64,000 nucleotides of DNA from Candidatus Woesearchaeota archaeon. Its GTDB lineage: Archaea; Nanobdellota; Nanobdellia; Woesearchaeales; JABIAG01. The notes under the pieces are model-generated. The model saw only the letters and a program-made list of their open reading frames with translations, was not told where the DNA came from and searched no databases. Location: positions 158,830 to 222,829 of the forward strand of contig JABIAG010000003.1 of assembly GCA_018653365.1 (NCBI GenBank), written 5' to 3'. The translations under genes and the position numbers were made by a program. Below, piece after piece: positions 32,855 through 49,848 of the stretch; the first letter of the stretch is position 1; every line of letters starts with the position of its first letter.

Positions 32855-32970
32855 TGGTGGGGACGCCAGGATTCGAACCCGGATCCATAGGTTTCTTCAG
32901 AGTCATTGGCTTTCGCCTCATTTTTCCATTACTGGAGCCCATTATTCTAGCCAGATTATACTACGTCCCC
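32855..32970 (-). tRNA. tRNA-Trp(CCA) with a 39-nt intron (32893-32931), 3' CCA encoded
   Basis: Acceptor GGGGACG/CGTCCCC; T-arm CCGGG-TTCGAAT-CCTGG; anticodon stem ATGGG/CCTAT closing loop CT-CCA-G/A once 39 nt at 37/38 are removed; ends ACCA. Confidence 0.85.
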
Positions 32971-33664: not shown

Positions 33665-33705
33665 ACTCTCTCAACCCTGTTTAACTATTTAAATTTTTAG
33701 CAATC

Positions 33706-33846
33706 TGAGACTAGTCTCAGACCGGTCTCAGCTGAGACTGAGACTGATTGAGACTGAGACTGAGACTCATTTCTCCACAGGAAACAAGGGGGTGGCTGAG
33801 ACTCAATTGAGACTCAACTGAGACTACTTTGAGACTGACCTGAGAC
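33706..33846. repeat. TGAGAC iteron array (11 direct and 2 inverted copies)
   Basis: TGAGAC at 33706, 33733, 33739, 33749, 33755, 33761, 33797, 33808, 33819, 33830, 33841; GTCTCA at 33714, 33725; the last five are exactly 11 bp apart. Confidence 0.9.
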
Positions 33847-47183: not shown

Positions 47184-48869
47184 TTATTTTTTTAGCCAGT
47201 TTTCTAGCATTACACCATATGCTGGTCTTGTAATAAATACACCTATTGAAACGCCAATTATTGTTGTGATTGCGAAACCTCTTAGTATTCCTGCTCCTGC
47301 TCGCATTAGTGGAAGCATTGCTACAACTGTGGTGAAGTAAGCCGCCATTATGATAAAGAATGCATTTTTCATTTTGGCTTGCCAGTTTGAGTGATGTTGT
47401 GTTTCTTTACGTAGTAGTTCGTCTGCAATTACTATTTGGTGATCTACGCCGGTTCCTACTACAATTATGATCCCTGCGATTGCTGCAAGGTCGAGGTTGG
47501 TACCAAATGCTGCTGCTATACCTAATAATAGTACAACCTCGCTTATGTTTGTTATGATCATTGGTAATGCAATTTTTATTGATCTGTATCGAATTAAGAC
47601 AATTCCTGCAACTACAATTATTGCTAGTAGACCAGTCAATACTGCCGTTTTTAGAAATTCTTTTCCAAGTATTGGACTAAGATTGTCTGCTTTTACAATT
47701 TTTAGTTTAACAGGTAAACTACCTGTTTTTAGTATAGTTTGTAATCTTTTCATGTTTGCTAGTGTAACACCCACTGCTTCATCTCGAGAACTGCCTATGC
47801 CCCCTCCGGTTATTTGAATTGTTGTTTCCGCTCTTCCTTTTAGTCCTGCTCCCACGTTTAATGAGTCAACTAATTGATCATCTAAGTAAAATTCTATTTT
47901 TTCACTTAATATTTCGCTTCCACTTTCACTTGTGATTACGTCTAAATCTTTTGTTACACTTGCTTGTTTTTCTGCTGCTTCAGATGATAAGTCTACTGTA
48001 AAGAAGAATTGGCAACTGTGTTGGCCGTCTGAAGTCTGTCCACATCCCTGACTTGGATTAATTCCTGAGCAATCTGAACTTCTACAAACGTATGCGATAT
48101 CTTCTCCTCCACTAAATACTGTTGTTCCATTTATTTTTGCTTCAAATTTTCCTTGGGTTCCAATTAAGGATTCTATCTCTTTTTTTTGTAAGCCTGCAAT
48201 TTCTATTAGTATGAATTGATTGCCTGATAGATCTGATGACTTTTTGATTTTAACATCGCTTAGTCCAAACGCATTTAGTCTTTGATCTAGGTTTTCAACA
48301 ACTTGGTCTATAATGTCTTCTTCAACTTTTTCTTCAGGGGTTAAAAGTACTCTCACTCCTCCCTGTAGGTCTAATCCTTTTCTTATGTTGTTTTGAGGTG
48401 CTTCATATACAGTGATTCCAATATCCGCAGTACCCACAATTATTTCGCGAGTTTCATTAATTTCAATGGTTTTTTCAACGGTTTCATTTCCAATTGTTTC
48501 ATTAATCGTTTTTGTGATGGTGTTGCCAGTATATTCCATTTCTATTTCTGGCAAGGTTTTTATTGTGTAAGAATTCTTTTCTGTTCGTAATCTGATTGTT
48601 CGATTTATTTCTAATTCACTAATGGCATCATAATAGTCGGAAACTGTTTTTATAGCATTTCCATTTACACTGGTAATTACTTCATGACTTAATGGTTGAG
48701 AATTTTTCGCAGGGCTCTCAAGTCCTGCTACGTATGCTGCAGAATCTTTTTCTACAAATCTTATTGCAACTCCTTCTTTATTTGTTGGATGTATTGCCGC
48801 TACTGCTAATAGTAAGCAAAAGATTAAGATAATAATTTTCAGGTTTGTGAAAATTTTTGGGATTTTCAT
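47184..48869 (-). CDS. secD: Preprotein translocase subunit SecD
   Basis: GLDLQGGVRVLLTPE, AAFGTNLDLAAIAGIIIVVGTGVDHQIVIADE. Confidence 0.93.
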   Translation of the reverse strand: MKIPKIFTNLKIIILIFCLLLAVAAIHPTNKEGVAIRFVEKDSAAYVAGLESPAKNSQPLSHEVITSVNGNAIKTVSDYYDAISELEINRTIRLRTEKNSYTIKTLPEIEMEYTGNTITKTINETIGNETVEKTIEINETREIIVGTADIGITVYEAPQNNIRKGLDLQGGVRVLLTPEEKVEEDIIDQVVENLDQRLNAFGLSDVKIKKSSDLSGNQFILIEIAGLQKKEIESLIGTQGKFEAKINGTTVFSGGEDIAYVCRSSDCSGINPSQGCGQTSDGQHSCQFFFTVDLSSEAAEKQASVTKDLDVITSESGSEILSEKIEFYLDDQLVDSLNVGAGLKGRAETTIQITGGGIGSSRDEAVGVTLANMKRLQTILKTGSLPVKLKIVKADNLSPILGKEFLKTAVLTGLLAIIVVAGIVLIRYRSIKIALPMIITNISEVVLLLGIAAAFGTNLDLAAIAGIIIVVGTGVDHQIVIADELLRKETQHHSNWQAKMKNAFFIIMAAYFTTVVAMLPLMRAGAGILRGFAITTIIGVSIGVFITRPAYGVMLENWLKK

Positions 48870-48961
48870 AAAATGTCCTCCATTTTATGAAGCCTAAAAA
48901 TCTCTGATTTTTGTTGCACACAAAAGTTTTTAACTTTTGGGGCACAAAAACTTTGTTTTTG
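48867..48961 (-). promoter_or_regulatory. Four tandem stem-loops in the secF-secD gap; the last overlaps SD and start codon of secD
   Basis: Reverse strand: CAAAAAC-AAA-GTTTTTG, CAAAAGTT-AAA-AACTTTTG, AAAAATC-AGA-GATTTTT, CATAAAATG-GAGGA-CATTTTATG; all perfect stems. Confidence 0.8.
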
Positions 48962-48966
48962 TTGTT

Positions 48967-49848
48967 TCATTGATGTTTTCTCCTATTAACATATATTTTT
49001 AGTATGCCTGCATTTTGGACCCAGGTATTCATCATGTCTACAATCAGTCCAATAAGTACGATTGTCATGATTTGTGTTATTACTGGGCTTTGTGAGAAAA
49101 TTATTGCGATTATTATTGCGGTTATTGTTGTTAGGGTCATCATAAATCCTGTTTTCATTGCAGATTTTATTCTTTCATCTACACTGCCCTCTTTTCGTTT
49201 AAGCACTTTTGTGGAAAGTAGGATGTTAGTGTCAACTGCGTATCCAATTAACATTAGAAATGCTGCTACACCTGCAGTACTTAATTTTATGCCCATCACG
49301 TTTACTACTGCCATTGTTATGATTATGTCAGATACTGCTGCTAGAACAATTGATGAACTTGGTACTATGCTTCTAAAATAAATAAATACAACTATGCCCA
49401 TAAATATGAACGCAAAAATTACTGCTCTAACAGTTTCTTTGAAAAAACTACTTCCTAGCGCACTTCCAATAGTTTCTATTGTTATTTGATCTTCTTCTAT
49501 GTTGAATTTGTTTTTTATTTGTTCTTTTATGTTATTTACATCTAGTTCTTCTGTTGAGTCGAGCTCTATAATTAGTCCGATCTGTCGCCCTGCGCCAGAA
49601 AGTGTTCTCACGTTTAACTCTCCATCATAATCTAATGAATTCTGAACTTCTATTGCATCGGTCCCGACACTGATTATCGAAATGCTGGTTCCTCCCTTTA
49701 GGGAAATTCCTTTGTTGACAAAGCTCCCTGTTGTCGAATAGTTCACAAATAAGAATATTATTGATATTGCTAGTATTATAAAGGGTATTGCTAAGATTAA
49801 TTTGCTTTTATCTTTGCGTCTATGCCCCCCTTCTGCATGTTCTTCCAT
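48967..49848 (-). CDS. secF: Preprotein translocase subunit SecF
   Basis: GISLKGGTSISI, GVAAFLMLIGYAVDTNILLSTKVL. Confidence 0.93.
   Translation of the reverse strand: MEEHAEGGHRRKDKSKLILAIPFIILAISIIFLFVNYSTTGSFVNKGISLKGGTSISIISVGTDAIEVQNSLDYDGELNVRTLSGAGRQIGLIIELDSTEELDVNNIKEQIKNKFNIEEDQITIETIGSALGSSFFKETVRAVIFAFIFMGIVVFIYFRSIVPSSSIVLAAVSDIIITMAVVNVMGIKLSTAGVAAFLMLIGYAVDTNILLSTKVLKRKEGSVDERIKSAMKTGFMMTLTTITAIIIAIIFSQSPVITQIMTIVLIGLIVDMMNTWVQNAGILKIYVNRRKHQ

What the first reader, a model, noticed from the sequence alone, without database searches (positions are those of the whole stretch)
48867..48961. secF-secD gap consists of four consecutive perfect stem-loops, the last enclosing the secD SD and AUG
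On the mRNA strand the 97-nt gap reads CAAAAAC-AAA-GTTTTTG, CAAAAGTT-AAA-AACTTTTG, AAAAATC-AGA-GATTTTT, then CATAAAATG-GAGGA-CATTTTATG. In the fourth hairpin the SD (GGAGGA) is in and around the loop and the start codon AUG is the end of the 3' stem, so initiation would require opening it. Established: some bacteria regulate sec genes through mRNA secondary structure opened by stalled translation (SecM-secA, VemP-secDF2). Inference: an RNA-based control of the SecD:SecF ratio in an archaeon.
Basis: partly seen in the sequence, partly recalled or inferred. Interest (0 to 1): 0.72.

Follow-up and report, generated by a model that had tools for sequence, protein, structure and literature searches.

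The report
Hairpin-chain insert with relay mini-gene
Between two protein-export genes of an uncultivated archaeon sits a 100-base insert of a hairpin-rich kind scattered through genomes of its order; it hides the second gene's start, but it also reads as a 34-codon mini-gene that overlaps both neighbours and could carry ribosomes from one to the other.

Summary
The four palindromes are real, at the stated coordinates, and form the densest hairpin cluster in 464 kb of this genome. Two parts of the reading change. First, the gap is not plainly untranslated: a 34-codon ORF (48866-48970, minus) with its own SD starts in an ATGA overlap with the secF stop and ends in an ATGA overlap with the secD start. 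Second, the hairpins are not secD-specific: in about 58 related junctions secF and secD mostly overlap directly, and none has a hairpin-bearing gap; instead, hairpin 3 is an order-wide dispersed hairpin (113 hits against 4 for the reversed hairpin, 61 genomes), usually in chains (60% against 9% with shuffled flanks) and multi-copy in some genomes. Best reading: a hairpin-chain repeat entered the ancestral secF/secD overlap; the secD start is predicted to be buried (rank 14 of 430), and the bridging ORF restores the minus-4 spacing that archaeal translational coupling needs. An arrest-peptide monitor is unlikely. The ORF could be chance (22% of intergenic stretches of that length are open), no close relative was available to test selection, and nothing here shows that it is translated.

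The parts
48967..49848 (-). secF, upstream gene; stop TGA 48969-48967
   Evidence: NCBIfam PRK08578-type SecF models, E about 1e-70, below the curated cut-offs
47184..48869 (-). secD, downstream gene; start ATG 48869-48867
   Evidence: NCBIfam PRK08343-type SecD models, best E 2e-99, below the curated cut-offs
48866..48970 (-). bridging ORF of 34 codons, MKQQKQSFCAPKVKNFCVQQKSEIFRLHKMEDIL, stop TGA; not shown to be translated
   Evidence: geometry; codon score inconclusive
48967..48970 (-). ATGA overlap of the secF stop and the bridging-ORF start
   Evidence: read directly
48866..48869 (-). ATGA overlap of the bridging-ORF stop and the secD start
   Evidence: read directly
48979..48984 (-). 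Shine-Dalgarno-like AGGAGA of the bridging ORF, inside the secF 3' end, 8 nt before its ATG
   Evidence: read directly
48876..48881 (-). secD Shine-Dalgarno GGAGGA, in and beside the H4 loop
   Evidence: read directly
48944..48962 (-). palindrome H1, 8 bp, loop AAA
   Evidence: weak as an RNA hairpin of its own
48921..48939 (-). palindrome H2, 8 bp, loop AAA
   Evidence: pair probability 0.95
48896..48912 (-). palindrome H3, 7 bp, loop AGA; copy of the order-wide dispersed hairpin AAAAATC-NNA-GATTTTT
   Evidence: pair probability 0.01 as a separate RNA hairpin
48865..48891 (-). palindrome H4, 11 bp, loop GAGGA; SD in and beside the loop, secD AUG in the 3' arm
   Evidence: pair probability 0.99

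Best explanation
A chain of short A+T-rich hairpins, of a repeat-like kind dispersed through this archaeal order, was inserted into (or grew within) an ancestral direct secF/secD overlap. Shown: most relatives overlap directly; the segment is hairpin-dense; H3 matches an order-wide dispersed hairpin; an open 34-codon frame with its own SD meets both neighbours by 4-nt ATGA overlaps. Inferred: ribosomes finishing secF reinitiate at what may be the old secD start (now the bridging-ORF start), unfold the insert, finish at the UGA that overlaps the secD AUG and reinitiate there. H4 keeps free ribosomes off the secD start, so secD depends on translation through the bridging ORF. The peptide itself need not matter.
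For: Direct overlaps in about 58 junctions of the order, with 4 gaps over 15 nt and none of those with hairpins or a bridging ORF. Dispersed hairpin class: 113 hits against 4, chains 60% against 9%, near-identical chains at different loci in G072, multi-copy element in G065. Both ATGA overlaps and both SDs. secD start costly to open, bridging-ORF start cheap; the cost at secD falls from 14.7 to 3.4 kcal/mol only when the ribosome covers the end of the bridging ORF. In Haloferax reinitiation is lost at about 22 nt between genes (PMC10666635), so a bare 97-nt gap should break coupling and a bridging ORF should restore it.
Against: The ORF may be chance: 22% of intergenic 95-mers stay open in such a frame, and the codon score is ambiguous. 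No homologue of the peptide and no genome of the same family, so there is no test of selection. No second copy of the whole insert in this genome and no defined ends, so insertion of a mobile unit is inferred. The secD SD is partly in a loop, so free initiation is possible.
Confidence: 0.55

Rival explanations
1. Neutral repeat insertion: the hairpin chain sits there without regulatory effect, the bridging ORF is chance, and secD is initiated independently from its own strong SD, which lies in and beside the H4 loop.
For: 22% of intergenic stretches are open in such a frame and chains in other genomes often have open frames, so a bridging ORF would arise by chance in very roughly 7-15% of inserts (my estimate). 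GGAGGA is a strong SD 7 nt before the AUG.
Against: The start is among the most costly to open in the sample; both overlaps are exactly minus 4, the commonest coupled spacing, and no other of 89 gaps in the sample shows both.
Confidence: 0.24
2. RNA-only control of secD (thermometer, ligand or protein switch): H4 or the longer fold opens in response to a signal, without translation of the gap.
For: H4 is stable and encloses SD and AUG; z-score -4.7 for the 136-nt region.
Against: No orthologous structure in relatives, no Rfam match. Predicted H4 pairing falls only from 1.0 to 0.93 between 10 and 65 C, not a switch-like melt. The hairpins are of a class found beside unrelated genes.
Confidence: 0.1
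3. Arrest-peptide monitor like SecM or VemP: the small ORF stalls the ribosome when export is weak and so opens H4.
For: Small ORF directly upstream of a sec gene whose start is masked by a stem, the same layout as secM-secA (PMC10987492).
Against: 34 residues, no signal or membrane segment in the sequence, whereas the search criteria for known monitors ask for one plus a spacer of over 30 residues; a ribosome anywhere before about nt 70-80 of the ORF is not predicted to free secD.
Confidence: 0.04
4. Transcription terminator or RNA-processing site that lowers secD mRNA relative to secF.
For: T runs on both strands of each palindrome; hairpins are denser between genes than in genes in all six genomes sampled.
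Against: Class members lie in co-directional, divergent and convergent gaps without a clear preference; this one is inside an operon for one complex.
Confidence: 0.07

Closest known systems
Translational coupling by termination-reinitiation at 4-nt ATGA overlaps in archaea and bacteria (Huber et al. 2019, PMC6728339; 2023, PMC10666635)
   Same: ATGA overlaps, SD before each start, genes for subunits of one complex.
   Different: Here the overlap is relayed through an inserted 34-codon ORF rather than joining secF to secD directly.
RNA-unfolding form of translational coupling (reviewed in PMC12548453)
   Same: A stem over the downstream start that an upstream ribosome would open.
   Different: The stem belongs to a repeat-like hairpin chain; nothing has been measured.
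REP sequences and other small dispersed palindromic repeats, MITEs (PMC3733652, PMC12306157, PMC10969869)
   Same: Short dispersed palindromes, often in clusters between genes, multi-copy in some genomes.
   Different: A+T-rich stems with three-base loops joined in chains; I did not test for GTAG/CGTC tags or an associated transposase.
Small mobile or palindromic elements read in frame (enterobacterial RU elements, PMC2759123; Rickettsia palindromic elements)
   Same: A palindromic repeat that supplies an open reading frame.
   Different: Here the frame is a separate mini-ORF between two genes; no multi-copy family of the whole insert in this genome.
Repetitive hairpin-forming elements of mitochondrial DNA (PMC2800124)
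   Same: Runs of short hairpins that invade intergenic spaces.
   Different: Different genomes; no homology tested or implied.
Sec monitoring arrest peptides SecM, VemP and relatives (PMC10987492)
   Same: Small ORF upstream of a sec gene with a stem over the start.
   Different: No targeting segment, too short, no homologue group, archaeal.

Membership tests
Coupling by termination-reinitiation | Stop and start overlap by 4 or 1 nt | tested here: met
   ATGA at 48970-48967 and at 48869-48866
Coupling by termination-reinitiation | Downstream translation depends on upstream translation | not testable with these tools
   needs a reporter or ribosome profiling
Coupling by termination-reinitiation | Upstream frame is really translated | tested here: inconclusive
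   codon score 2.5: reached by 40% of open intergenic frames, while 22% of gene windows score no higher
Dispersed hairpin-chain repeats of the order (REP-like) | Hairpin recurs at many unrelated loci | tested here: met
   H3: 7 loci in this genome, 113 hits in 61 genomes against 4 controls
Dispersed hairpin-chain repeats of the order (REP-like) | Hairpins stand in chains | tested here: met
   18 of 30 sites against 9% with shuffled flanks; here four or five
Dispersed hairpin-chain repeats of the order (REP-like) | Whole insert multi-copy in its own genome | tested here: not met
   only 18-30 nt pieces elsewhere
REP proper | GTAG or CGTC tag and a RAYT transposase | not tested
   feature taken from the literature; not searched
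Sec monitoring arrest peptide | N-terminal signal or membrane segment | tested here: not met
   hydrophilic 34-residue sequence; criterion from PMC10987492
Sec monitoring arrest peptide | C-terminal sequence conserved among homologues | tested here: not met
   no convincing homologue in 359 genomes
Conserved structured RNA of secFD | Pairing conserved in orthologous gaps | tested here: not met
   gaps mostly absent; the few present carry no hairpins; only distant relatives available
RNA thermometer | Start freed over a narrow temperature range | tested here: not met
   predicted H4 pairing 1.0 to 0.93 from 10 to 65 C; prediction only

The most novel reading that the evidence does not exclude
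Hairpin-chain repeats of this archaeal order create coupling mini-genes: by landing in a gene overlap they bury the downstream start and supply an open frame, so that the downstream gene depends on translation of the insert. A repeat thereby becomes a translational regulator, here of SecD relative to SecF.
Probability: 0.15. Interest if true: 0.75.

Novelty: new variant of a known kind. Interest (0 to 1): 0.42.

Why it matters
If right, it shows how a repeat insertion between two coupled genes of one complex can be tolerated and perhaps put to use: the insert is translated and passes the ribosome on. It also points to a class of A+T-rich hairpin chains, widespread in this uncultivated archaeal order, of which I found no description in the papers searched; that search was short and covers open-access papers only.

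Tried and rejected
Orthologous RNA structure in secF-secD gaps: rejected, relatives lack the gap or lack hairpins. Homologues of the 34-residue peptide: best E 0.007 per genome among 359 genomes, chance level; some of these hits exposed similar hairpin pairs in other genomes. Other full copies of the gap in its own genome: none. Rfam: nothing above threshold; Pfam: nothing for the peptide. Bidirectional terminator: contexts mixed. Erm-like attenuation, in which an early ribosome frees secD: not predicted. Spacer pattern TTTTTGTGC..CAAAAA: only about twofold over its control. A two-sided ATGA relay at other H3 sites: none found among 37 loci. A closest-relative test was impossible: the family holds only this genome, and metagenome contigs could not be scanned.

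Full report
Check of the observation. The window carries secF (48967-49848, minus) and secD (47184-48869, minus). In the gap the four perfect palindromes are present as described; H4 has an 11-bp stem, two pairs longer than stated. In 464 kb of this genome (window plus 20 stretches) no other place holds as many hairpins in 130 nt. A Markov simulation of the same amount gives one array of three or more, as does the real sequence, so the cluster stands out by its size (five with the one in the secD 5' end), not by the mere existence of an array. Of 431 gene starts, 7 lie in a perfect stem of 7 bp or more; secD's is the longest.

Reading from the ATG at 48970 gives MKQQKQSFCAPKVKNFCVQQKSEIFRLHKMEDIL and a stop TGA at 48868-48866. 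Its ATG overlaps the secF TGA (ATGA), its TGA overlaps the secD ATG (ATGA), and an SD-like AGGAGA stands 8 nt before it inside secF. Among 89 co-directional gaps of 45-250 nt in the sample, no other has an ORF meeting both neighbours at exactly minus 4; the same scan recovers two evident small ribosomal-protein genes. The codon score (+2.5) lies between open intergenic frames (mean 0.7; 40% score as high) and gene windows (mean 5.6; 22% score as low), so it decides nothing. In 22% of intergenic 95-mers such a frame stays open. With a one-in-three chance of the right frame, a bridging ORF would appear by chance in very roughly 7-15% of inserts (my estimate).

Relatives. The genome is the only one held of its family. 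Named relatives fetched by SecF are Woesearchaeota, Nanoarchaeota and other DPANN records, so I infer a Woesearchaeales-like order. In about 58 junctions (two genomes counted twice) secD mostly starts 4-23 nt inside secF or within 13 nt of its stop. Four have gaps of 19, 41, 92 and 97 nt; none of these has a perfect hairpin of 6 bp or more or a bridging ORF. The hairpin-bearing gap is therefore most simply derived, and was seen only here.

A wider class. The H3 hairpin AAAAATC-NNA-GATTTTT occurs at 7 places in this genome and in 37 of 61 genomes of the order, 113 hits against 4 for the same hairpin read backwards. In a phylum sample 30 of 59 genomes of the order (this one included) and 5 of 20 from other orders have it. 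At 30 such sites 18 have another hairpin within 14 nt, against 9% with shuffled flanks; chains of three or more, 17% against 0.4%. G072 has chains of three or four hairpins, two of them 64/66 identical at different loci. In G065 the hairpin is part of a longer multi-copy element with conserved spacers. H1-spacer-H2 resembles hairpin pairs in G041 (36/41) and G036 (36/42) next to other genes; these were picked from many genomes and are low in complexity, so the match is only suggestive. Some chains are read in frame at the start of long ORFs, as in L205 and L209. The palindromes are thus a repeat-like class and not a secFD device.

Fold and mechanism. As RNA, H2 and H4 dominate; H1 and H3 mostly pair with other arms, giving two longer hairpins. 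The secD start has an opening cost of 12.6 kcal/mol, rank 14 of 430; the bridging-ORF start costs 3.7 and the secF start 4.4. Masking the mRNA as a ribosome would lowers the cost at secD only once nucleotides up to about 85-95 of the bridging ORF are covered (14.7 to 3.4 kcal/mol). Published work on Haloferax shows that reinitiation is lost at about 22 nt between genes and works at short overlaps (PMC10666635), and structure over a downstream start that the upstream ribosome opens is a recognised form of coupling (PMC12548453). The simplest account is that the insert separated two coupled genes and that its open frame joins them again. H4's 3' arm uses resident secD bases, so its 5' arm must have arisen locally, by template switching or selection, or be fortuitous; this is unexplained.

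Alternatives. An arrest peptide of the SecM or VemP kind lacks the targeting segment and length (PMC10987492). An RNA-only switch lacks conservation and any Rfam match. A neutral insertion remains the main rival, because no relative close enough was available to test selection. A terminator is weakly possible.

Verdict. Observation confirmed; interpretation partly supported. The thing is a hairpin-chain insert with a bridging ORF, probably a coupling relay. The novelty lies in the combination and in the apparently undescribed hairpin-chain class of the order; translation, coupling and mobility are all untested.

Noticed in passing
L221-L235 (G065), e.g. L223 and L231: A longer multi-copy repeat built of hairpins with conserved spacers (CAGAAACAAAGTTTCTG-gcatgc-CAAAAATCAAAGATTTTTG and flanks), at a dozen or so loci; looks like a dispersed, possibly mobile element of unknown type.
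   Followed up: partly
L152 13821-13912 and 17103-17168, L160 11670-11767 (G072): Chains of three or four hairpins with GTAC/GCGTAC spacers, two of them 64/66 identical at different intergenic loci.
   Followed up: partly
L113 (G000 C2:80613): H3-type hairpin between two co-directional genes (NUDIX-like by eye), read in a small ORF MIQKSKIFEHFIR that overlaps the upstream stop by ATGA and ends 8 nt before the next ATG: a possible second, shorter relay.
   Followed up: partly
L205 (G011) and L209 (G013): Hairpin chains lie in frame within the first codons of long ORFs (MSKKSKIFKNSENPQDF..., MKTRKNQRFFVSQKLQISG...), as with palindromic elements inserted in coding genes elsewhere.
   Followed up: no
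window 33700-33825: Dense GAGACT/AGTCTC repeats and palindromes (TCTGAGACTAGTCTCAGA, GTCTCAGCTGAGACTGAGAC) between two minus-strand ORFs.
   Followed up: no
window 32858-32970, minus: tRNA found by Rfam (39.7 bits) over 113 nt but not by ARAGORN; probably contains an intron.
   Followed up: no
window 48840-48868, minus: The secD 5' coding end holds two more overlapping palindromes and in the predicted fold pairs with the 3' arm of H3, extending the H4 hairpin.
   Followed up: partly
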